From NCBI RefSeq assembly GCF_034087045.1, contig NZ_CP139247.1, positions 2,630,001-2,694,000 on the forward strand: DNA of 64,000 nt, written 5' to 3'. The notes under the pieces were generated by a model. The model was not told the origin of the DNA. It ran no database searches and was given only the letters and a program-made list of their open reading frames with translations. The stretch is from Chitinophaga sancti. Lineage in GTDB: Bacteria; Bacteroidota; Bacteroidia; Chitinophagales; Chitinophagaceae. Below, piece by piece: positions 11,817-21,999 of this stretch. How positions within the stretch are numbered: position 1 is the first letter of the stretch; every line of letters starts with the position of its first letter. The translations under genes and the position numbers were made by a program.

Positions 11817-12896
11817 TCAGTTGTAGACTTTCACCATATATACGAAGTCTTCCAGCTTTTTGATCTGTTCTACGCGGGTCAGATTCTCAAGGCGATTCTT
11901 GTGATTCCATTTACCCATCTTTTCTTTCGGCATTTCTTCCAGCAGGCGTTTCAGCTGTGCTGATTTCACTGCGAAAGCAATCCCGTCAGCAGTTGTTTGT
12001 TTGCCGGTTACAATACCTACTACATCACCCTTTGCATCCATCAGCGGTGCACCACTGTTGCCTGGGTTTACAGGTATAGAAACCTGGTAAGCGGCAGAGT
12101 CTCCATTGAAACCAGTCTGTGCACTGATATAACCTTCTCCATAAACAATCTCGTCACGTGGATAACCCAGTGTAAAGACTTTCTCGCCACGCAGGGCTTT
12201 CTGGAATTTTACAGAATAAGGAATAGGCTGGCTTCTGAAGGTGCTATCTGTGATCTTTAAGATCGCCAGATCGCTGGAGATGTCTTCGAATACGCTGGTA
12301 GCTTTGTAAGCTTCCCCTTTGGTATTCTGGATATAGATAGAATCAGCACCTGCAACCACATGGTAGTTAGTGACCACATACCCATTGTCGGTAATGGCAA
12401 AACCTGTGCCTCCGTAAGTGCCGGGGTTGACAGGTAACCGTTTCTTGTTATTAATATCGTTGATAAGGGCGTTCTGAGAGCGCTGAATATTGTTCAGCAC
12501 CCGTCTTACATCCTCATATTGTGCGGTAGTTTTTTGCCTGTTAGCTTTCTGGATAAGTGCGATCGTGCTCAGCGAGGTAACGAGGGCGATACAGGCAGCG
12601 GCCGCAACGTTAGTAAGCAACCTTCTGCGGAAAGGGATAACCCTGGCTGGAGCAGGAGAGGCTGCATTGCGCAGCATGTCCATATCGAGGGAGGCATGGA
12701 TATGATCCATTTTCTCCTGTAGCGCCAATCTGCGGCCGTAACTTTCCAGCTGTGCCGTAATGTGCTGATGGGCTTTCAACTGCTCATTTACTACCGGGTT
12801 GGATTGACACAGCGCTTCGAATGCAGTTTTTTCCTGCATATTCATGTCGCCTTCCAGATAGCGTTCAATATCACGAATTAAATTTGTATCATTCAT
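11817..12896 (-). CDS. Membrane protein: anti-sigma-like N-terminus fused to trypsin-like serine protease
   Basis: 359 residues in three parts. Residues 1-90 are cytoplasmic and helical (IRDIERYLEGDMNMQEKTAF then NPVVNEQLKAHQ), resembling anti-sigma N-termini of Bacteroidota. A membrane helix spans about 94-115. Residues about 155-320 form an S1C/HtrA-like protease with an intact triad: His179 in TNYHVV, Asp209 in SSDLAIL, Ser281 in NPGNSGAPL. No PDZ domain follows. The ECF sigma gene lies 35 bases upstream on the same strand, so the N-terminus probably holds that sigma factor while the protease domain faces the periplasm. The sigma-binding role is inferred. Confidence 0.78.
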   Translation of the reverse strand: MNDTNLIRDIERYLEGDMNMQEKTAFEALCQSNPVVNEQLKAHQHITAQLESYGRRLALQEKMDHIHASLDMDMLRNAASPAPARVIPFRRRLLTNVAAAACIALVTSLSTIALIQKANRQKTTAQYEDVRRVLNNIQRSQNALINDINNKKRLPVNPGTYGGTGFAITDNGYVVTNYHVVAGADSIYIQNTKGEAYKATSVFEDISSDLAILKITDSTFRSQPIPYSVKFQKALRGEKVFTLGYPRDEIVYGEGYISAQTGFNGDSAAYQVSIPVNPGNSGAPLMDAKGDVVGIVTGKQTTADGIAFAVKSAQLKRLLEEMPKEKMGKWNHKNRLENLTRVEQIKKLEDFVYMVKVYN

Positions 12897-12931
12897 CGCC
12901 TGTAAACCACTTTGCGGGTCCTGTAGGGGCC

Positions 12932-13501
12932 CTATAATTTATATTTATCAAAAAAGAGTTTCTTCAATCGCATCAGGCACTTATACTTCTGATTCTTTGC
13001 ATTTTCCGCGTTTGTGTACCCGAATTTCTCTGCTATATCTGCCATGGAGAGTTTCCTGATATAATAATCTTCCAGGATGGTCTTGCAGGGTTCTCCCATG
13101 TTACCCAAAGATTGCTCCATGATGCGGAACTGTTCGTCCTTTTTATCATGGTCTTCCATGTGGTTGTCTGCCGGTATTACTGCTTCCAATTCCTCCGGCA
13201 GGGAGAGCTGCCAGCTGCCTGACTGGAGTTTTTTGAGCCAGAGGTGGCGGCAGATGGCGTATAAATAGGTCTTGAGTTTACTATAGAGATCAAATTCGCT
13301 TGTCTGTGCTTTCTCATATAGTACGATCATGGCCTCCTGGAAAAGATCTTTTGCATCATCCTCAGAACCTTTATGCTGTAAAACCATTCTTAATACGGCC
13401 GGAAAATTTTCCACGTAAATGGTAGACAGCGCTTTATCGTCATTCCGGGTAAGTCCCAGTAATAATTCCCGATCCCTTTCTATGTTCAGATTATGCTTCA
13501 C
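12932..13501 (-). CDS. ECF-type RNA polymerase sigma factor
   Basis: 189 residues. Region 2 spans about 25-95 (DDAKDLFQEAMIVLYEK, KLKTYLYAICRHLWLKKL), region 4 about 130-185, with the helix-turn-helix KLSMADIAEKFGYTNAENAK. No region 1.1 or 3, as expected for ECF sigmas. The start appears to be GTG at 13501; there is no early in-frame ATG. It is transcribed ahead of the membrane protease/anti-sigma-like gene, forming a two-gene signalling unit. Its regulon is unknown. Confidence 0.88.
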   Translation of the reverse strand: MKHNLNIERDRELLLGLTRNDDKALSTIYVENFPAVLRMVLQHKGSEDDAKDLFQEAMIVLYEKAQTSEFDLYSKLKTYLYAICRHLWLKKLQSGSWQLSLPEELEAVIPADNHMEDHDKKDEQFRIMEQSLGNMGEPCKTILEDYYIRKLSMADIAEKFGYTNAENAKNQKYKCLMRLKKLFFDKYKL

Positions 13502-13753
13502 TTATTAATACTATTATATCGCTTTGGTAACCCAAAGTAGGGGAAAAAAAATAAGTTTTCAGCCATGTGATAGATGCAGACTGCCATCTTTTTTCATATA
13601 AACTTATAATTTATATAATTAAAAACCTTGCCTATGGCTGGTTTTATTTAAAAAATAGATTTTTTGAAAAATATTTCTGAAAAGCTGGGTTACCTTTCTT
13701 TCATCCTGGTATAAAGAAGAAACAATATTTCAAAAAACCTAAAAAATAAAAAA

Positions 13754-13981
13754 ATGAAGAACGCACTGAAAATTGGTTTCTTAGCATTAGCACTGGGTGT
13801 ATTTGTAACTGCATGTGGCGGTGGCGCAAGCGAAACTGCTACTGATTCTACAGCTGCAGCTACACAGGCAATCGATTCAGTAGCAAACGCTGCTAACGAT
13901 TCTATCACTGCTAAAGCTGATACCGCTAAAGCTGCAACCGATTCTATCGCTGCTGCTGCTAAAGATTCAGTTAAGCACTAA
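13754..13981 (+). CDS. Small alanine-rich lipoprotein
   Basis: 75 residues. A lipoprotein signal peptide ends at the lipobox VTAC (Cys21), followed by GGG. The mature 55 residues are almost only Ala, Thr, Asp, Ser and Lys. Asp-Ser or Asp-Thr pairs recur at 31, 41, 49, 56, 63 and 71, spacings of 7 to 10, consistent with one long amphipathic helix as in small Lpp-like envelope proteins. No domain is recognised and the function is unknown. The AT-rich upstream region and A-rich start context suggest high expression. Confidence 0.8.
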   Translation: MKNALKIGFLALALGVFVTACGGGASETATDSTAAATQAIDSVANAANDSITAKADTAKAATDSIAAAAKDSVKH

Positions 13982-14014
13982 TCTTACTCCGCAAGCAATA
14001 AAGCTTTTTATATG

Positions 14015-14045
14015 CCGCTCTGCAACCGTAGGGCGGTTTTTTTTT
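14015..14045 (+). terminator. Intrinsic terminator of the Ala-rich lipoprotein gene
   Basis: Stem CCGCTCTGC (14015-14023) with GTAGGGCGG (14028-14036), including two G-T pairs, followed by a run of nine T. Confidence 0.85.
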
Positions 14046-14134
14046 ATCTACAGGGGTAGGGAAGCCATCATTTTTGAATAAATCATTGAATTTCCGGTCT
14101 TTTATTGAACAGAATGTAATTTTTAATAAAAGTG

Positions 14135-14165
14135 CTTGGACAATTCAAATCCTGATGTATTTTTG
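14135..14165 (+). promoter_or_regulatory. Promoter of the aromatic amino acid operon
   Basis: -33 element CTTG (14135-14138), 19-nt spacer, -7 element TATTTTTG (14158-14165), an exact match to TAnnTTTG. The start should fall near 14172, about 14 nt before the first leader peptide. The motif GGACAATTCAA (14138-14148) recurs as GGGCAATTCAA (14168-14178), one copy at the -33 side and one at the start site. Confidence 0.75.
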
Positions 14166-14185
14166 TTGGGCAATTCAAGCAAATT

Positions 14186-14248
14186 ATGATACAGCAAACA
14201 ACCTTTGGTTACTTTTATGGTTTCTACTTTTTCTGGTACCAGAATTAG
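14186..14248 (+). CDS. Leader peptide 1, Phe/Tyr/Trp-rich (attenuator)
   Basis: A 20-codon frame read directly: ATG 14186, TAG 14246-14248, peptide MIQQTTFGYFYGFYFFWYQN. Ten of residues 7-18 are aromatic (5 Phe, 4 Tyr, 1 Trp). It starts about 14 nt after the predicted transcription start. Its stop codon overlaps the antiterminator strand GGGAGGTC. Such aromatic runs ahead of an intrinsic terminator and aromatic biosynthesis genes are the signature of translation-coupled attenuation: a ribosome slowed by scarce charged tRNA-Phe or tRNA-Tyr would free the antiterminator. The peptide itself probably has no other role. Confidence 0.82.
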   Translation: MIQQTTFGYFYGFYFFWYQN

Positions 14249-14325
14249 GGAGGTCGTTTGTAGTACTTAAACATAAAAAGAAACTAACAAAAAGGCCTCC
14301 CGATAAGGGAGGCCTTCTTTTTTTT
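14248..14325 (+). promoter_or_regulatory. Attenuator 1: antiterminator strand and intrinsic terminator
   Basis: Terminator stem AAGGCCTCCC (14292-14301) with GGGAGGCCTT (14307-14316), loop GATAA, then C and a run of eight T. The 5' arm GGCCTCCC (14294-14301) can instead pair with GGGAGGTC (14248-14255), eight pairs including one G-T. A ribosome at the leader stop codon (14246-14248) would mask that strand and let the terminator form; one stalled in the aromatic codons would leave it free. Confidence 0.8.
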
Positions 14326-14339
14326 AAATAACTCGATAT

Positions 14340-14420
14340 ATGTTACGCCGTTTCAGTCTTTACTTCTTTTACTTTTTTTACTTTTTCTTTTACGTCGTAA
14401 AGGCCGGGACTCTCTTGTAA
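14340..14420 (+). CDS. Leader peptide 2, Phe/Tyr-rich (attenuator)
   Basis: A 26-codon frame: ATG 14340, TAA 14418-14420. Residues 5-18 read FSLYFFYFFYFFFY: 8 Phe and 4 Tyr in 14 positions, followed by VVKAGTLL. It begins 15 bases after the T tract of attenuator 1, too close for an independent standard promoter, so it should be reached only by transcripts that pass terminator 1. Its last third overlaps the second antiterminator strand. Sensing of Phe and Tyr charging is inferred from codon content and from pheA and tyrA downstream. Confidence 0.85.
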   Translation: MLRRFSLYFFYFFYFFFYVVKAGTLL

Positions 14421-14480
14421 AAAATGCACTAAACATATAACTGCACTTTAAAGGGTCCCGGCTCAACCGGGGCCCTTTTT
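14403..14480 (+). promoter_or_regulatory. Attenuator 2: antiterminator strand and intrinsic terminator
   Basis: Terminator stem GGGTCCCGG (14453-14461) with CCGGGGCCC (14467-14475), loop CTCAA, then five T. The 5' arm plus one base (GGGTCCCGGC, 14453-14462) can pair with GCCGGGACTC (14403-14412), ten pairs including one G-T. That strand lies inside leader 2 just before its stop codon, so a terminating ribosome would cover it and favour the terminator. Confidence 0.82.
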
Positions 14481-14537
14481 CATTTTATCCGGTAGTTGTT
14501 GTAGCAACTATCAAATACAAACAAATCAAATTAAACG

Positions 14538-15359
14538 ATGCACATCGCAATTCAGGGATTCGAAGGGTGTTTTCACCAAATAGCGGCACAAGGATACTAT
14601 GGAAAGGATATAACGATCGAATGTTGTGCTTCATTCGCGGAATTGATTAAAAAAGTAAAAACGCAGGTAGCCGATGCAGGTGTGATGGCCATCGAAAACT
14701 CGATTGCCGGAAGTATTCTTCCAAACTACACGCTGCTGAAAAACTCGAACCTGCATGTGGTAGGAGAAGTATACCTGCATATCAAACAGCATCTGATGGC
14801 GCTACCCGGTACGCCATTGGACGATATCAGGGAAGTACACAGTCATCATATGGCGCTGTTGCAGTGTACTGACTTCCTGGACAAGTATCCGCAAATGAAG
14901 CTGGTGGAAACTGAAGATACCGCCCTGAGTGCAAAACATGTGGCTACCAAGAAATTGAAAACCACAGCAGCTATCGCGGGCAAACTGGCAGCTGAAATTT
15001 ATGGTCTGGAAATCATTGCACCAAACATCCATACCATCAAAAATAACTATACCCGTTTTCTGGTGATCTCTCCAAATGGGGTAGAACCTGCGGCCGATTC
15101 CAACAAAGCATCTGTATACTTCCAGACGTCTCACGAATCTGGTAGTCTGGCAAAGGTGCTGACACAGGTAGCAAGTACAGGTATTAACCTGAGCAAACTG
15201 CAGTCTTTCCCAATGCCAACCAAAGAGTGGAACTATTATTTCCATGCCGATTTCGAATTCGAAGATCTGGCTACTTTCCAGAAAGGCATCAGCAAAATCA
15301 CACCGCTGACTGAACATCTGAAAGTGCTCGGTATCTACAAAAAAGGCAAAACATTATAA
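14538..15359 (+). CDS. pheA: Prephenate dehydratase
   Basis: 273 residues, monofunctional (no fused chorismate mutase). Residues 1-178 form the dehydratase domain, starting IAIQGFEGCFHQIAA, with the catalytic Thr-Arg-Phe in NYTRFLVIS (172-174). An ACT domain follows (about 192-268). It converts prephenate to phenylpyruvate. The Phe-binding ACT motif, usually ESRP, reads LQSFP (221-225), so feedback inhibition may be altered. First structural gene of the operon, 58 bases after attenuator 2; a TAGTTG/CAACTA hairpin lies in that gap. Confidence 0.9.
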   Translation: MHIAIQGFEGCFHQIAAQGYYGKDITIECCASFAELIKKVKTQVADAGVMAIENSIAGSILPNYTLLKNSNLHVVGEVYLHIKQHLMALPGTPLDDIREVHSHHMALLQCTDFLDKYPQMKLVETEDTALSAKHVATKKLKTTAAIAGKLAAEIYGLEIIAPNIHTIKNNYTRFLVISPNGVEPAADSNKASVYFQTSHESGSLAKVLTQVASTGINLSKLQSFPMPTKEWNYYFHADFEFEDLATFQKGISKITPLTEHLKVLGIYKKGKTL

Positions 15360-15381
15360 TCCTATTTTTCAATCTTACGAT

Positions 15382-16542
15382 ATGAACTTACAGGTAGCAA
15401 AACGGTTGCAACAAACAGAAGAATACTACTTCTCCAAAAAACTGAGAGAAATAGATGAAATGAACAGGGCTGGTGCCAAAGTGATCAACCTTGGTATTGG
15501 TAGTCCTGATCTGCCCCCGCATCCTTCTGTGATCGAGGCATTGACTGACAATGCTCATCGCCCCGATACGCATGCCTATCAAGGGTACAAAGGGATCCCT
15601 GCTTTGCGCCAGGCAATGGCCAGCTGGTATCAGCGCTACTACAGCGTGACCCTGGACCCTGAGAAAGAAGTATTGCCACTGATCGGTTCCAAAGAAGGTA
15701 TTATGCACATATGCATGACCTACCTGCAGGAAGGTGATGAAGCCCTGGTACCCAACCCGGGTTACCCTACCTACCGTTCTGCTGTGAACCTGAGTGGTGC
15801 TACCGTAAGAGACTATGACCTGGAAGAAAAAAACGGATGGTTGCCTGATCTCGATGCACTGGCTAAAACTGACCTGAGCAAGGTGAAACTGATGTGGGTA
15901 AACTATCCGCATATGCCAACCGGTGCCCGTTTCAACACTACCTTTGCAGAAAAGCTGATCAGATTTGCCAACGATCATAATATCCTCATCTGCCACGACA
16001 ATCCTTACAGCTTTATCCTGAATGCACAGCCACAAAGCTTATTGCAAACACCAGGGGCGAAGGATGTGGTACTGGAACTGAACTCACTGAGCAAATCATC
16101 TAACATGGCCGGATGGCGCGTGGGTATGCTGGTGGGTAAACAGGAGTGGATCAACGAGGTACTGCGTTTCAAAAGTAATATGGATTCCGGTATGTTCCAG
16201 CCATTGCAAATGGCCGCTGTAAAAGCACTGGAACTGGGGCCTGAATGGTATGCAGCGCTAAATGAGATCTATACCGGCCGCCGTCAGAAAGTATTTGAAC
16301 TGCTGGAATTGCTGAACTGTACTTTTGATCGTGACCAGGTAGGTATGTTCGTATGGGCTAAGATACCAGCAACTGCGAAAGACGGATTTACTGTGACGGA
16401 CGAAATTCTGCAGAAAGCGCAGGTATTTATCACACCGGGTGGTATCTTCGGTAGTAACGGTAACGGATATATAAGGGTGAGCCTTTGTAAAGATGAAAAA
16501 GTATTTGACGAAGTGTTGCAACGGATCAGGGCAATTAAATAA
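15382..16542 (+). CDS. Class I/II PLP aminotransferase, probable Phe/Tyr aminotransferase
   Basis: 386 residues of fold-type I aminotransferase. Visible are the substrate/PLP stretch INLGIGSPDLPPHPSV, AYQGYKGIPALRQAM, VNYPHMPTGA (usual form NYPNNPTGA), and the Schiff-base Lys238 in NSLSKSSNMAGWRVG. Sequence alone would also fit LL-diaminopimelate-type enzymes. Its place between pheA and tyrA, with gaps of 22 and 12 bases, makes transamination of phenylpyruvate and hydroxyphenylpyruvate the likely job. Confidence 0.85.
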   Translation: MNLQVAKRLQQTEEYYFSKKLREIDEMNRAGAKVINLGIGSPDLPPHPSVIEALTDNAHRPDTHAYQGYKGIPALRQAMASWYQRYYSVTLDPEKEVLPLIGSKEGIMHICMTYLQEGDEALVPNPGYPTYRSAVNLSGATVRDYDLEEKNGWLPDLDALAKTDLSKVKLMWVNYPHMPTGARFNTTFAEKLIRFANDHNILICHDNPYSFILNAQPQSLLQTPGAKDVVLELNSLSKSSNMAGWRVGMLVGKQEWINEVLRFKSNMDSGMFQPLQMAAVKALELGPEWYAALNEIYTGRRQKVFELLELLNCTFDRDQVGMFVWAKIPATAKDGFTVTDEILQKAQVFITPGGIFGSNGNGYIRVSLCKDEKVFDEVLQRIRAIK

Positions 16543-16554
16543 ACAGACAAAGTT

Positions 16555-17397
16555 ATGATCGTAACGATAGTTGGTACTGGTTTAATCGGTGGATCTCTGG
16601 CCATCAGCCTGAGAACAAAGAGTGTGGCCACCCACATCATCGGTGTGGACCACAACGAAGATAATCTTAAAAAGGCGCAGGAGCTTGGCATCATCGATGA
16701 AGGTGCTACCCTGGAAGCAGCCATGCAGCGTTCAACAGTGGTCATACTTGCAATACCTGTAGACGGTTTGCTGAAAGTGTTGCCTGCTATATTGGATAAC
16801 GCGGGACCACAACAGGTGATCATGGATGTGGGCTCTACAAAAGAAAAAATATTAGCACTCGTTGCCGGTCATCCCCACAGAGGACGCTTTGTAGCTGCCC
16901 ACCCGATGGCCGGCACGGAGTATTCCGGCCCCGAAGCTGCCATACCGAACCTCTTCACCAACAAGACCATGGTGCTGTGCGATGTGAAAAACAGTGATGA
17001 AGACGCCGTGGAAATTGTTGAGGATATGGTAGACAAACTGCAGATGCGTCTCGTATATATGAATGCGGAAGAGCATGACCTGCATACAGCCTACGTATCG
17101 CACATCTCTCACATCACCTCCTTTGCACTGGCACTGACCGTACTGCAAAAGGAAAAAGAGCACGGACGGATCTTTGAACTGGCAAGTGGTGGTTTTGAAT
17201 CAACCGTACGTCTGGCCAAGAGCTCTCCTGATATGTGGGTACCGATCTTTAAGCATAACCGTCATAATGTGCTGGATGTACTGGATGAACATATCCACCA
17301 GCTGCAACAGATGAAGGACCTGCTGGAAAATGAAGATTATGACGCTTTTTATAAACTGATCCAGAAATCAAATAAGATCAGAAAGATCTTAAAATAA
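16555..17397 (+). CDS. tyrA: Prephenate dehydrogenase
   Basis: 280 residues. The N-terminal NAD(P)-binding fold has TIVGTGLIGGSLAISLRTK; the catalytic region has AAHPMAGTEYSGPEAA, and the helical C-terminal domain includes YVSHISHITSFALAL and ELASGGFESTVRLAKSS. It oxidises prephenate to 4-hydroxyphenylpyruvate. There is no ACT domain and no fused mutase, so regulation probably lies elsewhere, for example in the leader and the DAHP synthase fusion downstream. Confidence 0.92.
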   Translation: MIVTIVGTGLIGGSLAISLRTKSVATHIIGVDHNEDNLKKAQELGIIDEGATLEAAMQRSTVVILAIPVDGLLKVLPAILDNAGPQQVIMDVGSTKEKILALVAGHPHRGRFVAAHPMAGTEYSGPEAAIPNLFTNKTMVLCDVKNSDEDAVEIVEDMVDKLQMRLVYMNAEEHDLHTAYVSHISHITSFALALTVLQKEKEHGRIFELASGGFESTVRLAKSSPDMWVPIFKHNRHNVLDVLDEHIHQLQQMKDLLENEDYDAFYKLIQKSNKIRKILK

Positions 17398-17507: not shown

Positions 17508-18605
17508 ATGGTATTAGCAGACATCCTCTCCAACACGAAATTCTCTGATCCGGGCTCAGATAAGAAGCCGTTGATCATTTCCGGCCCTTGCAGCGCTGAA
17601 ACTGAAGAGCAGGTACTTGAAACCGCACAGCGCCTGGCTAAGACAGGTAAAGTAGATGTACTGCGTGCTGGCATCTGGAAACCACGTACCCGCCCAGGTT
17701 CCTTCGAAGGTATTGGTGTACAGGGTCTGCCATGGTTACAGAAAGCAAAAGCCCTGACCGGTTTACCAGTAGCTGTGGAAGTAGCTACCCGTCAGCAGGT
17801 GGAAGAAGCCCTGGCACATGATGTAGATATCCTGTGGATTGGTGCACGTACCACTGTGAACCCATTCTCTGTGCAGGAAGTAGCTGATGCGCTGAAAGGT
17901 GTGGATACAACTGTATTGATCAAGAACCCAATCAACCCGGACCTGGAACTGTGGGTAGGTGCAGTAGAGCGTGTGCGTAACTCCGGCATTACCAAAATTG
18001 GTCTGATCCACCGTGGATTCTCCAGCTATGGCAATACTGAATACCGTAATGCACCGATGTGGCACCTGCCAATCGAAATGAAACGTCGTATGCCAGAACT
18101 GCCTATCGTGTGCGATCCTAGTCACATTGGTGGTCGTCGTGACATACTGCAGGAAATCGGTCAGGAAGCAATCGACCTGGATTACGATGGTCTGATGCTG
18201 GAATCACATATTGATCCGGACAAAGCATGGAGCGATGCGAAACAACAGGTTACTCCTGAAAGACTGGCAGAAATTTTGGATGGTATCAAGTGGCGCCATG
18301 AACGTACCGATGTAAAAGAATTCAACTCTGCACTGGATAAACTGCGTGGTCAGATCAACCAGATTGATGATGAAATTCTGCTGTTGCTGGGCAATCGTAT
18401 GAAGATTGCTGAGAAGATTGGTCTCTACAAGAAAGAGAACAACGTGACCATCCTGCAAACGAACCGCTGGAATGAAATCCTGGAGCGTGGTATCGCTAAG
18501 GGTGACAAACTGGGTCTGACAAAGGATTTCATCCTGAAATACTTCGATGCAGTTCACCTGGAATCAATCAACAGGCAGAACAGAGTAATGAACGAAGGCA
18601 AATAA
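17508..18605 (+). CDS. Bifunctional DAHP synthase / chorismate mutase
   Basis: 365 residues. Residues 1-265 are type I-beta 3-deoxy-7-phosphoheptulonate synthase: LIISGPCSAETEEQV, RPGSFEGIGVQGL, VCDPSHIGGRRDI. Residues about 278-362 are an AroQ-type chorismate mutase with LDKLRGQINQIDDEILLLLG, RMKIAEKIGLYKK and a late Gln/Arg helix. The mutase lies at the C-terminus, as in the Porphyromonas and Prevotella enzymes, where prephenate binding to the mutase part controls the synthase. It catalyses the first step of the shikimate pathway and the branch to prephenate. Confidence 0.93.
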   Translation: MVLADILSNTKFSDPGSDKKPLIISGPCSAETEEQVLETAQRLAKTGKVDVLRAGIWKPRTRPGSFEGIGVQGLPWLQKAKALTGLPVAVEVATRQQVEEALAHDVDILWIGARTTVNPFSVQEVADALKGVDTTVLIKNPINPDLELWVGAVERVRNSGITKIGLIHRGFSSYGNTEYRNAPMWHLPIEMKRRMPELPIVCDPSHIGGRRDILQEIGQEAIDLDYDGLMLESHIDPDKAWSDAKQQVTPERLAEILDGIKWRHERTDVKEFNSALDKLRGQINQIDDEILLLLGNRMKIAEKIGLYKKENNVTILQTNRWNEILERGIAKGDKLGLTKDFILKYFDAVHLESINRQNRVMNEGK

Positions 18606-18645: not shown

Positions 18646-19671
18646 ATGAGAACATTATCTTACCAGTTCCAGCACAGTGCTACCAAATATTACCTGGGAG
18701 AGAGCCTCCACCAGCTGGGCAATTATGCAGATCCATCCCGTACCGTACTGGTTGTGGATGATAATGTGGATAAACTCCACGGAATGAAATTGCAGGGTTG
18801 GAGGAAGCTGGTGATTCCGGATGGAGAAGAGAATAAAAGTGAGGAAGTACTCGAACAGATCATTGATGGGCTCATAGAGCTGGAAGCTGACCGCAAGACT
18901 ATGCTCGTTGGTATAGGCGGTGGCATGACCACAGATTTAACAGGTTATGCCGCCAGCATATATATGCGTGGTATGCCGGTAGGTTTCGTACCTACTACGC
19001 TGCTCGCACAGGTAGATGCATCTATCGGTGGCAAGAACGGTATCAACCATGGTAAACATAAGAATATGCTGGGCACCATCCGGCAACCGGAGTTTATCCT
19101 GTTTGACTATTCACTGCCACTGACCATGCCTGACGAAGAATGGCATAATGGTTTTGCGGAGATCATTAAGTATGCCTGCATCATGGATGCAGGTATGTTC
19201 ACTTACCTCGAAGAAAACCGGGATAAGGCCATGCAAAAGGATGTAGCCGTTCTGGAATACCTGGTAGAACGCTCTGTAGAGCTGAAGACCAAGGTAGTAC
19301 TGGAAGATGAATTTGAGCAGGCGTCTCGTCGCTGGCTCAACTTTGGCCACACCCTGGGGCATGCAGTAGAAAAAATTGAGAACATCGCCCATGGTAAAGC
19401 GGTGGCAATCGGGATGGTGGCAGCAGCCAAAATTTCTGAGAAGCTCTCTACTTTGCCAGTAGAACAAACAAACCGGTTGATCAGGCTGATCAATGATTAC
19501 CAGTTGCCGGTGACCCTGACTTCCAACAAAGAAGAGATGTATGACATCTTCAAGCTGGATAAGAAAAGGGAAAAGGATGCGATCAATTTTGTGCTGCTGG
19601 AACAATTAGGTAGCGCGCATACAAAGGCTGTACCGCTGGCAACGCTGAAGCAGTTGCTGGAGGAGCTATAA
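18646..19671 (+). CDS. aroB: 3-dehydroquinate synthase
   Basis: 341 residues, NAD- and metal-dependent. The NAD site shows VGIGGGMTTDLTGYAASIYMRG and PTTLLAQVDASIGGKNGIN; the metal-binding part includes NGFAEIIKYACI (Glu) and NFGHTLGHAVE (His pair). It closes DAHP to 3-dehydroquinate. Genes for the next steps (aroD/Q, aroE, aroK) are not in the window, so the operon holds the first two and last two common steps. Confidence 0.94.
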   Translation: MRTLSYQFQHSATKYYLGESLHQLGNYADPSRTVLVVDDNVDKLHGMKLQGWRKLVIPDGEENKSEEVLEQIIDGLIELEADRKTMLVGIGGGMTTDLTGYAASIYMRGMPVGFVPTTLLAQVDASIGGKNGINHGKHKNMLGTIRQPEFILFDYSLPLTMPDEEWHNGFAEIIKYACIMDAGMFTYLEENRDKAMQKDVAVLEYLVERSVELKTKVVLEDEFEQASRRWLNFGHTLGHAVEKIENIAHGKAVAIGMVAAAKISEKLSTLPVEQTNRLIRLINDYQLPVTLTSNKEEMYDIFKLDKKREKDAINFVLLEQLGSAHTKAVPLATLKQLLEEL

Positions 19672-19687
19672 ACAACCAAACACACAC

Positions 19688-20977
19688 ATGCAAGTAACAA
19701 TATTACCCGGCAGCATTCATGGCACCGTAACTGCCAATCCTTCCAAAAGCGCTATGCAAAGGGCAGTAGCCGCAGCGTTGCTGAGCAATGGTAAAAGCAT
19801 TATCCGGAATCCGGGCTTGAGCAATGACTGTCTCGCAGCACTGGATGTAGCCAGCAAACTGGGTGCAACTATCAATCGTCAGGAAGATTATATCGGGATT
19901 ACCAGCAATGGTATTCACCCGGTACAGTCTGCAGATAACGAAATTAATTGTGGAGAATCCGGTCTTGGTATCCGCATGTTTACACCGATCGCATCTTTGT
20001 CTGCACTGCCTATTACCATCAATGGTCATGGTAGTCTGACCACCCGTCCTATGAACTTCTTCGAAGAAGTTTTACCACAGGTGGGGGTAAAGATCAGCAG
20101 CCGTGAGGGCAAGCTGCCTTTGCACATTCAGGGCCCATTACAGGCGCAGAATATTACGATTGATGGTTCACTTAGCTCACAGTTCTTAACAGGCTTATTA
20201 ATGGCCTTTGGTGCTGTTGCAGAAGATGTGACTATCACCGTTAAAGACCTGAAGAGTAAACCTTATATCGCCCTTACCCTGCAGCTCATGGAGCAATTTG
20301 GGGTACAGGTGAAAGAGGAGAACTTTGAGCGTTTCTCATTTGGTAAGAAACAGGCATATAAAGCCGGCGAATATACTGTAGAAGGAGATTGGAGCGGTGC
20401 TGCGTTCCTGCTGGTGGCTGCTGCTGTAGCTGGTAAGGCAGAGGTACACCACCTCAATACACAATCTGCACAATCTGATAAAGCGATACTGGAAGCACTG
20501 GAAAAAGCAGGCGCTGGTCTGATGTCAGGTGTATTCACTGTGAATGTGGAAAAGCAACAATTAAAAGCGTTTGATTTCGATGCGACTGATTGTCCTGATC
20601 TGTTCCCTCCACTGGTAGCGCTGGCAGCTAATTGCGAAGGCACTACGAAAATACTGGGTGTGAGCAGGCTGGCACACAAGGAAAGTGACCGTGGTAAAAC
20701 CTTACAGGAAGAATTTGGTAAACTGGGTATCAGTATTGACCTGCATGGCGATGAAATGCTGGTGCATGGTGGTACTGGTATTACCGGTGGTACTGTTCGC
20801 TCTCACAATGATCACAGGATTGCCATGGCATGTGCAGTAGCTGCACTGACAGCGAGTGGTCCGGTAGTGATTGAAGATGCGGAGGCGATTAACAAATCTT
20901 ATCCTGAATTTTACGAACATTTGCAGAAGTTAGGCGGTGTAGTAAAACAGGAAGGAGCCACCAGTCAGGTACATTAA
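19688..20977 (+). CDS. aroA: 3-phosphoshikimate 1-carboxyvinyltransferase (EPSP synthase)
   Basis: 429 residues. Two inside-out alpha/beta domains are indicated by NPSKSAMQRAVAAALL at the N-terminus, INCGESGLGIRMFTPIASL, GSLSSQFLTGLLMAF and HKESDRGKTLQEEF. A Gly-Asp-Trp-Ser segment and HNDHRIAMACAVAAL follow. It transfers enolpyruvyl from PEP to shikimate-3-phosphate. The usual NAGTA-type glycine loop reads NCGESGLGIR, the variant seen in many Bacteroidota. It starts 16 bases after aroB. Confidence 0.93.
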   Translation: MQVTILPGSIHGTVTANPSKSAMQRAVAAALLSNGKSIIRNPGLSNDCLAALDVASKLGATINRQEDYIGITSNGIHPVQSADNEINCGESGLGIRMFTPIASLSALPITINGHGSLTTRPMNFFEEVLPQVGVKISSREGKLPLHIQGPLQAQNITIDGSLSSQFLTGLLMAFGAVAEDVTITVKDLKSKPYIALTLQLMEQFGVQVKEENFERFSFGKKQAYKAGEYTVEGDWSGAAFLLVAAAVAGKAEVHHLNTQSAQSDKAILEALEKAGAGLMSGVFTVNVEKQQLKAFDFDATDCPDLFPPLVALAANCEGTTKILGVSRLAHKESDRGKTLQEEFGKLGISIDLHGDEMLVHGGTGITGGTVRSHNDHRIAMACAVAALTASGPVVIEDAEAINKSYPEFYEHLQKLGGVVKQEGATSQVH

Positions 20978-21003: not shown

Positions 21004-21999
21004 ATGAACAGTTTCGGTAGATTATTCCGGGTAAATGTTTTTGGAGAGTCGCATGGCGCTAGTGTAGGCGTGAATATTGACGGTGTACCGGCAGGTATTC
21101 CGCTGAAGCAGGAAGATTTCCTGCCAGACCTGGACAGGCGCAAAGCGGGCGCCAAAGGCACCACACCGCGTAAGGAAGATGATCTGCCTTACATCAAATC
21201 AGGCGTTTTCAATGACCATACAACTGGTGCGCCGATTACAATTTTGTTTGAGAACAACAATACGCGTAGTACTGACTATGAGAAGCTGCGTGAGTTTCCA
21301 CGTCCCGGTCATGCAGATTTTGTAGCTACACATAAGTATGGTGGCTTTGAAGATTACCGTGGTGGCGGACACTTTAGCGGCAGGCTTACACTGAACCTGG
21401 TAGCTGCTGGTGTAATAGCCAAGAAGATATTGGGGGAAAGCATTAAGGTAACAGCAACTTTGAAAGAAGTGGCAGGATTGCCTGATGCAGCGCAGGGACT
21501 GGAAGCAGCGATTGCTGCAAAAGACTCTGTAGGTGGTATCGTAGAATGCGTGGTAGAAGGGCTGCCAATCGGATTGGGAGAGCCTTTCTTTGACTCCGTA
21601 GAGTCTTGTATTGCACATGCGGTGTTTGCTATTCCGGCAATCAAAGGCATTGAGTTCGGTGCAGGGTTTGCTGCGGCAAAGATGAAAGGGATAGAGCATA
21701 ACGATGCGATACTGGATGCCAGTGGGAAGACTGCTACAAATAATGCGGGTGGTGTAGTAGGGGGTATTACCAACGGGAATCCTTTGGTATTCCGTGTGGC
21801 GGTGAAACCTACTTCAAGCACGCCTAAGGAGCAGCATACATTGAATATTAAGAGTGGACAGGTAGAGGCTTTTAGTGTGAAGGGAAGACATGATTTGTGT
21901 ATAGCGCTGAGGGTACCGGTGGTGTTGGAAGCTGTGGCGGCGATGGCGCTGGCAGATTTGATGATGGTGGAGCAGCGGAGTCCCAGAGTGTGGAAATAA
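21004..21999 (+). CDS. aroC: Chorismate synthase
   Basis: 331 residues, slightly short of the usual 350-360. The FMN-dependent fold is clear: FGRLFRVNVFGESHGASVGV, LDRRKAGAKGTTPRKEDD, FPRPGHADFVATHKYG, DYRGGGHFSGRLTLNLVAAG and NAGGVVGGITNGNPL. It removes phosphate from EPSP to give chorismate. Last gene of the aromatic operon, before a strong bidirectional terminator. Confidence 0.95.
   Translation: MNSFGRLFRVNVFGESHGASVGVNIDGVPAGIPLKQEDFLPDLDRRKAGAKGTTPRKEDDLPYIKSGVFNDHTTGAPITILFENNNTRSTDYEKLREFPRPGHADFVATHKYGGFEDYRGGGHFSGRLTLNLVAAGVIAKKILGESIKVTATLKEVAGLPDAAQGLEAAIAAKDSVGGIVECVVEGLPIGLGEPFFDSVESCIAHAVFAIPAIKGIEFGAGFAAAKMKGIEHNDAILDASGKTATNNAGGVVGGITNGNPLVFRVAVKPTSSTPKEQHTLNIKSGQVEAFSVKGRHDLCIALRVPVVLEAVAAMALADLMMVEQRSPRVWK

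What the first reader, a model, noticed from the sequence alone, without database searches (positions are those of the whole stretch)
14135..14480. Tandem Phe/Tyr leader-peptide attenuators in front of a complete aromatic operon
One promoter is followed by two consecutive units, each with a short aromatic-rich reading frame, an antiterminator strand at or near its stop codon, and an intrinsic terminator. Peptide 1 (14186-14248) has 10 aromatics in residues 7-18; peptide 2 (14340-14420) has 12 in residues 5-18. In each case the strand near the stop can pair with the 5' arm of the terminator (14248-14255 with 14294-14301; 14403-14412 with 14453-14462). This is the enterobacterial trp/phe attenuation logic, here doubled, in a Bacteroidota, and placed before pheA, tyrA, DAHP synthase-mutase, aroB, aroA and aroC. 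I do not know of a described tandem aromatic leader of this kind in this phylum; that novelty is my judgement. Two gates in series could sharpen the response or separate Phe from Tyr sensing, since peptide 1 is nearly balanced in Phe and Tyr while peptide 2 is mainly Phe.
Basis: partly seen in the sequence, partly recalled or inferred. Interest (0 to 1): 0.92.

Follow-up and report, generated by a model that had tools for sequence, protein, structure and literature searches.

The report
Twin aromatic-sensing switches before pheA
Before a set of genes that make aromatic amino acids, this bacterium carries two transcription stop-switches one after the other, each built around a tiny Phe/Tyr-rich peptide and apparently opened when those amino acids run short; the switch type is known, but this doubled form, seen in every genus member examined and in some members of two other families, looks undescribed.

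Summary
Downstream of one Bacteroidota-type promoter lie two complete units (aromatic leader ORF, antiterminator strand, intrinsic terminator) before pheA. The doublet is conserved: 78 of 78 Chitinophaga loci examined carry both leaders. Terminator and antiterminator stems show compensatory changes in both units. The promoter motif precedes leader 1 in 77 of 78 loci and the full motif never lies between the leaders. Ribosome geometry fits trp/phe-type attenuation in both units.

Two reader claims need correction. A single leader is ordinary in the rest of the family (70 of 72 loci), and Bacteroidota leader-peptide attenuation is already hinted at in print (PMC9723704). The Phe-versus-Tyr split is not supported, because the codons exchange at many positions. 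Unit 1 carries one Trp codon in 77 of 78, but an RNA hairpin overlaps it, so Trp sensing is unproven.

Tandem units recur in Hymenobacteraceae (9 of 30) and family f2 of the same order (13 of 30), and in none of 77 other-Chitinophagaceae loci. Verdict: a real, probably undescribed tandem variant of ribosome-mediated attenuation. No expression data were available.

The parts
14136..14165 (+). Promoter: TTG (14136-14138) and TATTTTTG (14158-14165), Bacteroidota-type -33/-7 elements; inferred start about 14172
   Evidence: Motif TTG-N17-22-TANNTTTG upstream of leader 1 in 77 of 78 genus loci; in 14 of 1560 shuffled upstream regions; in 0 of 78 between the two leader starts, where the -7 part alone occurs in 6 of 78. 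Consensus recalled, from no call.
14186..14248 (+). Leader ORF 1 (20 aa, 5 Phe, 4 Tyr, 1 Trp)
   Evidence: a counterpart with 8-10 aromatics in 14 residues in 78 of 78 genus loci; aromatic positions vary synonymously and between Phe and Tyr
14195..14203 (+). Unit 1 strand 1 (CAAACAACC), can pair with GGTCGTTTG 14252-14260 (one A-C mismatch in the window)
   Evidence: 79.9% of cells paired in 47 species but no covariation beyond shuffles; own pairing beats median swap in 40 of 47
14230..14245 (+). Small hairpin inside ORF 1 (TTTCTG-GTAC-CAGAAT; the outermost pair is missing in the window itself) overlapping the Trp codon 14234-14236
   Evidence: 98.9% of cells paired in 47 species, no two-sided changes, hence no covariation support; TTC 78 of 78, TGG 77 of 78, CAG 75 of 78
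14248..14255 (+). Unit 1 antiterminator strand 2 (GGGAGGTC), begins at the last base of the stop codon
   Evidence: Pairs with 14294-14301; 90.9% cells paired, 13 two-sided-change cells vs 6.6 in shuffles (0 of 500 as high)
14292..14325 (+). Unit 1 intrinsic terminator (stem 14292-14301/14307-14316, then CTTTTTTTT)
   Evidence: 95.1% paired, 21 two-sided-change cells vs 6.3 in shuffles (0 of 500)
14340..14420 (+). Leader ORF 2 (26 aa, 8 Phe, 4 Tyr)
   Evidence: a counterpart with 7-12 aromatics in 14 residues in 78 of 78 genus loci; in L065 its frame is shifted part-way
14403..14413 (+). Unit 2 antiterminator strand 2 (GCCGGGACTCT), inside ORF 2 before its stop
   Evidence: 84.8% cells paired, 8 two-sided-change cells vs 3.3 in shuffles (3 of 500)
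14450..14486 (+). Unit 2 intrinsic terminator (stem 14450-14461/14467-14478 and T-rich tail)
   Evidence: 96.2% paired, 6 two-sided-change cells vs 1.6 in shuffles (0 of 500)
14538..15359 (+). pheA, prephenate dehydratase (first controlled gene)
   Evidence: PF00800
15382..21999 (+). Rest of the presumed operon: aminotransferase 15382-16542, prephenate dehydrogenase 16555-17397, DAHP synthase-chorismate mutase 17508-18605, aroB 18646-19671, aroA 19688-20977, aroC 21004-21999
   Evidence: co-transcription inferred from spacing, not shown

Best explanation
Two self-contained ribosome-mediated transcription attenuators stand in series on one transcript. In each unit RNA polymerase makes the leader ORF and a ribosome follows. 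If charged tRNA-Phe or tRNA-Tyr is short, the ribosome stalls on the aromatic run, strand 2 near the stop codon stays free and pairs with the 5' arm of the terminator, so transcription continues. If supply is good, the ribosome reaches the stop codon, covers strand 2, the terminator forms and transcription ends. Polymerase must pass both terminators to reach pheA, so basal read-through should be roughly the product of the two. Unit 1 has one nearly invariant Trp codon, in the window at the last position where a stall would still free strand 2, so it may also report Trp. Shown by sequence and comparison: frames, strands, terminators, single promoter motif, compensatory changes, geometry. Inferred: termination, stalling, amino-acid response, multiplication of the two gates.
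For: Both leaders in 78 of 78 genus loci (76 of 78 under the stricter scan). A terminator-like folded hairpin for all 226 units tested, weakest -11.4 kcal/mol. Strand 2 to terminator-arm pairing: mean z -3.99 in unit 1 (67 of 78 beat all 60 shuffles) and -5.05 in unit 2 (69 of 78). Two-sided changes in 2:3 and 3:4 of both units. Own-species 2:3 pairing beats the median swapped partner in 41 of 47 (unit 1) and 26 of 47 (unit 2); the units are orthogonal: -16.0 own vs -8.5 cross, -19.7 own vs -10.3 cross kcal/mol. One promoter for both. Geometry: strand 2 starts a median 11 nt (unit 1, 69 of 78 used) or 12 nt (unit 2, 78) after the first base of the last aromatic codon, and a ribosome at the stop covers 100% or 97% of its core. 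The genus shows the same layout at trpE (Trp leader in 29 of 30, 22 of 30 with a perfect-stem terminator too) and hisG (30 of 30 by the scan, one of them, L370, doubtful). No T-box or riboswitch match; the best Rfam hit is Phe_leader, below threshold.
Against: No transcript-end, start-site or translation data. The protector pairing 1:2 shows no covariation beyond shuffles in unit 1, and the one folded in the window is not conserved in unit 2 (52.5% paired), so the classical third state is weak, in unit 2 above all. Swap test for unit 2 is only marginal (26 of 47). Some measures do not beat their controls: number of pairs with two-sided change and pair types in unit 1 2:3 (106 and 346 of 500 shuffles as high), and slid registers sometimes give as many or more two-sided cells. 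The footprint offsets are recalled E. coli values. The close transcription-translation coupling that the model needs was not tested here.
Confidence: 0.85

Rival explanations
1. Only unit 2, the type that resembles the family's single leaders, is a regulated attenuator; unit 1 is a mostly constitutive damping terminator with a decayed or idle leader.
For: Single leaders elsewhere in the family resemble unit 2 more than unit 1 (mean z 4.61 vs 2.82 over 60 random pairs each).
Against: Unit 1 covaries at least as strongly as unit 2, its leader keeps 8 or more aromatics in 14 residues in 78 of 78, and its geometry is as precise.
Confidence: 0.08
2. The two gates read different signals: unit 1 reads all three aromatic amino acids, Trp included, and unit 2 reads Phe/Tyr, giving a logic function rather than a simple sharpener.
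For: Unit 1 has a Tyr codon at -8 and a TTC Phe codon at -6 in 78 of 78 and a Trp codon at -5 in 77 of 78 (counted from the stop; leaders with an extra AGG codon shifted by one); unit 2 has no Trp in 78 of 78. The cluster includes common-pathway enzymes that feed Trp. Trp is also sensed, it seems, at trpE.
Against: The Trp codon lies in a hairpin fixed at nucleotide level, so RNA constraint may explain it; L022 has lost Trp (TGT) and keeps the hairpin; and in a strict series a Trp-only shortage would still be blocked at gate 2.
Confidence: 0.35
3. The short ORFs encode functional aromatic-rich small proteins and the terminators are unrelated.
For: Peptides are conserved across the genus.
Against: The tail of peptide 2 follows the pairing strand (my reading); Phe and Tyr exchange at many positions; each leader is followed by a terminator whose arm pairs with it.
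Confidence: 0.03
4. Chance aromatic ORFs in T-rich DNA next to two stacked intergenic terminators.
For: The intergenic region is A+T-rich and T runs encode Phe.
Against: Both leaders in 78 of 78, codon-level conservation, two-sided changes, zero such ORFs in 30 shuffles.
Confidence: 0.01

Closest known systems
Enterobacterial pheA/trp leader attenuators (Rfam RF01859 Phe_leader)
   Same: Short cognate-codon ORF, alternative stems 2:3 and 3:4, intrinsic terminator, upstream of pheA (features of the enterobacterial case recalled)
   Different: Two units in series; Phe+Tyr(+Trp) mixed codons; Rfam score 41.1 bits, below the gathering score 55; weak or absent 1:2 pairing in unit 2
Salmonella mgtCBR tandem attenuators mgtM/mgtP (PMC3641672; abstract and section 11 read)
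   Same: Two leader ORFs in one leader mRNA, acting independently
   Different: There ATP and proline signals and no intrinsic terminators (the authors raise Rho as a possibility); here two intrinsic terminators and overlapping amino-acid signals
mefA/msrD double attenuation in streptococci (PMC10314930; start of abstract and one passage seen)
   Same: Two attenuators described as a double lock
   Different: Macrolide-induced, antibiotic-resistance genes
Structured 5' elements upstream of pheA and hisG in Flavobacterium (PMC9723704; section 19 read)
   Same: Same phylum and genes; leader-peptide attenuation upstream of amino-acid operons suggested
   Different: No tandem leader mentioned in the section read; supplements not seen
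Single Phe/Tyr leaders of other Chitinophagaceae (this work)
   Same: Same gene, same logic, resemble unit 2
   Different: One unit only in 70 of 72; none at the threshold in 2 (L114, L124)

Membership tests
Ribosome-mediated (trp-type) transcription attenuator | Short leader ORF rich in codons of the amino acid made by the operon | tested here: met
   Both units, 78 of 78
Ribosome-mediated (trp-type) transcription attenuator | Intrinsic terminator after the ORF, conserved with compensatory change | tested here: met
   (a folded terminator-like hairpin found for all 226 units tested)
Ribosome-mediated (trp-type) transcription attenuator | Mutually exclusive antiterminator 2:3 with compensatory change | tested here: met
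   weaker in unit 2
Ribosome-mediated (trp-type) transcription attenuator | Protector/pause hairpin 1:2 | tested here: inconclusive
   Unit 1 79.9% paired, no covariation excess; unit 2 not conserved as folded here, 52.5%
Ribosome-mediated (trp-type) transcription attenuator | Stall at cognate codons frees strand 2, ribosome at stop covers it | tested here: met
   Geometry only, with recalled footprint size; unit 1 in 69 of 78
Ribosome-mediated (trp-type) transcription attenuator | Read-through rises on shortage of the amino acid | not testable with these tools
   No expression data
Rfam RF01859 Phe_leader | Score at or above gathering threshold (55 bits) | tested here: not met
   41.1 bits at 14193-14322; also 35.6 on the opposite strand
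T-box or known riboswitch | Match to the Rfam model | tested here: not met
   None among 15 matches with E up to 1 in 13000-16000

The most novel reading that the evidence does not exclude
A serial two-gate attenuator in which gate 1 integrates all three aromatic amino acids and gate 2 only Phe/Tyr. Doubling itself is favoured at pheA and arose at least twice in Bacteroidota: by unit duplication in family f2 of the same order, and with less similar units in Chitinophaga and Hymenobacteraceae, the latter two perhaps sharing the pheA cluster by transfer.
Probability: 0.35. Interest if true: 0.75.

Novelty: new variant of a known kind. Interest (0 to 1): 0.6.

Why it matters
Doubled amino-acid attenuators with two intrinsic terminators would show that attenuation can be stacked to widen dynamic range or combine signals without any regulatory protein. 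With 78 Chitinophaga loci, further cases in two other families and single-unit relatives as a natural control, the question whether serial attenuators multiply, and why pheA but not trpE or hisG shows a second leader in this genus, becomes directly testable. It also implies that transcription and translation are coupled closely enough for attenuation in Bacteroidota, which as far as I recall is little tested.

Tried and rejected
Tandem leader linked to operon extension: not supported. aroB lies about 4-6 kb from pheA on the same contig and strand in relatives that have a single leader, for example G168, G143, G160 and G153 (L139, L126, L136, L131; coordinates read by eye, leaders; not tallied).

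Phe versus Tyr division of labour between the gates: rejected, codons interchange at many positions.

Unit 1 as a recent copy of unit 2 or of another leader in the genome: a covariance model of unit 1 gave 146 bits at unit 1 and at most 38.7 bits elsewhere, with unit 2 at 35.3 (150 of 4366 first-look candidates were scored), so no recent copy was seen. Pairwise tests are weaker evidence: within-genome unit 1 vs unit 2 mean z 3.28 in Chitinophaga (26 of 76 sampled, z>3 in 13), 3.12 in Hymenobacteraceae (9), 7.16 in f2 (13); cross-lineage unit pairs gave 1.3-3.0, except Chitinophaga unit 2 vs Hymenobacteraceae unit 2 (6.41) and Chitinophaga unit 1 vs Hymenobacteraceae unit 2 (4.53), which does not fit a clean split of unit types.

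Single origin of tandem units: not resolved. The pheA tree (quick method, 133 rows, 35 labelled tandem) needs 13 label changes, at least 5 forced by starred branches. Only 10 of the first 30 genus loci were used; loci L031-L150 hold too little of pheA and were left out, as were L286, L299, L302, L303, L305 and, unread by the script, L224 and L297.

Rows dropped or limited: G072 (contig begins 112 bases before pheA) is not among the 78. Two of the 78 are poor: L065 (G046, 80% complete; leader 2 frame shifted) and L078 (G064, 65% complete; pheA broken by a stop). Of 170 non-genus family genomes with a pheA hit, 72 were fetched, one to a few per genus. Tandem counts in other families rest on the 30 best-scoring pheA matches of 46 (f48) and of 39 (f2). 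The 77 other-family loci include two genomes twice (G082, G110); 73 had one leader, 4 none by that scan (L102, L114, L124, L350), one of these, L102, because its ORF exceeds the length limit. Unit 1 geometry used 69 of 78 (nine dropped because the duplex search placed strand 2 too far upstream). Alignments used 47 of 78 loci, the less redundant ones. Named loci L237-L280 were not scanned, as they repeat genus genomes.

Against genus-wide reach by name: a MAG record named Chitinophaga pinensis (L300, pheA 57% identical) has one leader before a terminator; it groups with other Chitinophagaceae in the tree, so I take the name as wrong.

Papers opened without use: PMC4833913 and PMC8632094 (passages only).

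Full report
The observation. The window lies in an 8.32-Mb single-contig genome whose genus I read as Chitinophaga: the nearest named pheA relatives are [Flexibacter] sp. ATCC 35208 (99%) and C. silvisoli (96%), and most of the close named loci are Chitinophaga. Every coordinate of the finding is exact. Downstream of a TTG/TATTTTTG promoter there are two units, each an aromatic-rich ORF, a strand at its end complementary to the 5' arm of a terminator, and the terminator itself, then pheA. Both terminators fold better than all 200 shuffles. A terminator-like site at 14014-14037 follows the upstream ORF 13754-13981, so the leader probably starts its own transcript.

Conservation in the genus. 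pheA was found in 79 of 79 genus genomes; 78 were examined upstream. All 78 have two leaders. A stricter scan counts 76 of 78 with both leaders and terminators; it misses L003 and L006, whose leader 2 frame is longer than 60 aa because of an upstream in-frame start. Aromatic positions change synonymously or between Phe and Tyr; peptide 1 has on average 4.9 Phe, 3.6 Tyr and 1.0 Trp, peptide 2 6.2 Phe, 4.1 Tyr and no Trp.

RNA structure. In 47 less redundant species the terminator stem (3:4) and antiterminator (2:3) of unit 1 show two-sided changes beyond shuffles (21 vs 6.3 and 13 vs 6.6 cells), and so do those of unit 2 (6 vs 1.6 and 8 vs 3.3). The covariation score exceeds shuffles in all four (0, 0, 2 and 1 of 500 as high) and is highest in the true register. 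Not every measure does: for unit 1 2:3 the number of pairs with two-sided change and of pair types is reached by 106 and 346 of 500 shuffles, for unit 2 3:4 by 60 and 76. As the tool warns, relatedness can exceed shuffles without structure. The slid controls are lower on percent paired in every case, though slides of +1 and +2 give more two-sided cells than the true register for unit 1 2:3 (20 and 17 vs 13), slide -1 gives more for unit 2 3:4 (7 vs 6) and slide +3 as many for unit 2 2:3 (8). Alignment-free tests agree: duplex energies beat shuffled strand 2, and each species' strand 2 prefers its own terminator arm, clearly in unit 1 (41 of 47) and weakly in unit 2 (26 of 47). The units do not cross-pair well. 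The protector pairing 1:2 is plausible in unit 1 but not shown by covariation, and not conserved in unit 2 as folded here.

Geometry. With a standard ribosome footprint (recalled; overlap of one base allowed), a stall on most aromatic codons leaves strand 2 free (mean 0.90 of codons in unit 1, 69 of 78 loci; 0.95 in unit 2, 78 loci), and a ribosome at the stop covers its core. Unit 1 has strand 2 just at and after the stop; unit 2 has it inside the ORF tail, which would explain why the tail of peptide 2 (GTLL or GTRL) is kept; that it is kept as RNA is my reading. By my own count in the window, the Trp codon is the last at which a stall would still leave strand 2 free.

One promoter. The promoter motif is upstream of leader 1 in 77 of 78 and the full motif never between the two leader starts (0 of 78; its -7 part alone in 6); the gap from terminator 1 to the second ATG is a median 25 nt, range 19-58. 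The gates therefore lie in series.

Distribution. Other Chitinophagaceae: one leader in 70 of 72 loci, none at the threshold in 2. In the class and phylum samples 29 of 40 further loci have one leader with a terminator and 11 none; these are best-scoring pheA matches, so the sample leans to close relatives. Tandem units with terminators: 13 of 30 in family f2 of the same order, 9 of 30 in family f48, which I read as Hymenobacteraceae because named Hymenobacter records group with it. I think of f2 as Saprospiraceae only by recollection of the order; no call named it. In f2 the two units resemble each other strongly (z 7.16), suggesting unit duplication there; in Chitinophaga the resemblance is much weaker (3.28).

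Context in the genus. trpE has a Trp leader in 29 of 30, and hisG a His leader in 30 of 30 by the scan (L370's ORF is doubtful). In these scans I saw one leader per locus. So leader-peptide attenuation looks routine here and, of the three operons looked at, only pheA is doubled.

What is known. [quoted passage not shown] A 2021 transcriptome of Flavobacterium reported strong clues for leader-peptide attenuation upstream of amino-acid operons and structured elements upstream of pheA and hisG (PMC9723704, section 19). B. thetaiotaomicron 5' UTRs hold short ORFs reminiscent of leader peptides (PMC7366714, passages). Tandem attenuators are known in Salmonella mgtCBR (PMC3641672, abstract and section 11) and a double lock in msrD (PMC10314930, one passage). 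No paper on tandem aromatic leaders was seen in the listings of ten searches; the library holds open-licence papers only.

Verdict. Real, conserved and mechanistically coherent; a new variant of ribosome-mediated attenuation. The response itself, the sensing of Trp and the multiplication of the gates remain untested.

Noticed in passing
L319 (G000:C1 about 2515600), L310-L339: Trp-rich leader ORF (own genome MTTFITNNHWRWHNISS) before trpE in 29 of 30 Chitinophaga, 22 of 30 also with a perfect-stem terminator in the scan.
   Followed up: partly
L391 (G000:C1 about 2511000), L367-L396: His-rich leader ORF (own genome MNANVHTHHHHHFLPRR) and terminator before hisG in 30 of 30 by the scan, one (L370) doubtful.
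   Followed up: partly
L152, L156, L180-L194: Hymenobacter-type pheA groups with Chitinophagaceae rather than with the other pheA genes of its family, suggesting horizontal transfer.
   Followed up: no
L286: A MAG labelled Bacteroidetes bacterium has two aromatic-rich frames and two terminator-like sites before pheA, but the second frame runs on past its terminator, so it was not counted as tandem.
   Followed up: partly
G155, G214, G259, G295 (genus g78): All four genomes listed from this genus show one TAA inside the pheA match; not examined.
   Followed up: no
14230-14245: Near-invariant small hairpin in the end of leader ORF 1, covering the Trp codon; function unknown, possibly a pause hairpin.
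   Followed up: partly
18646-19671: A second aroB-like match is counted in all six Chitinophaga genomes.
   Followed up: no
11817-13501: Sigma-70 region 2 protein (12932-13501, -) next to a protein that looks like a trypsin-like protease (11817-12896, -; judged by eye).
   Followed up: no
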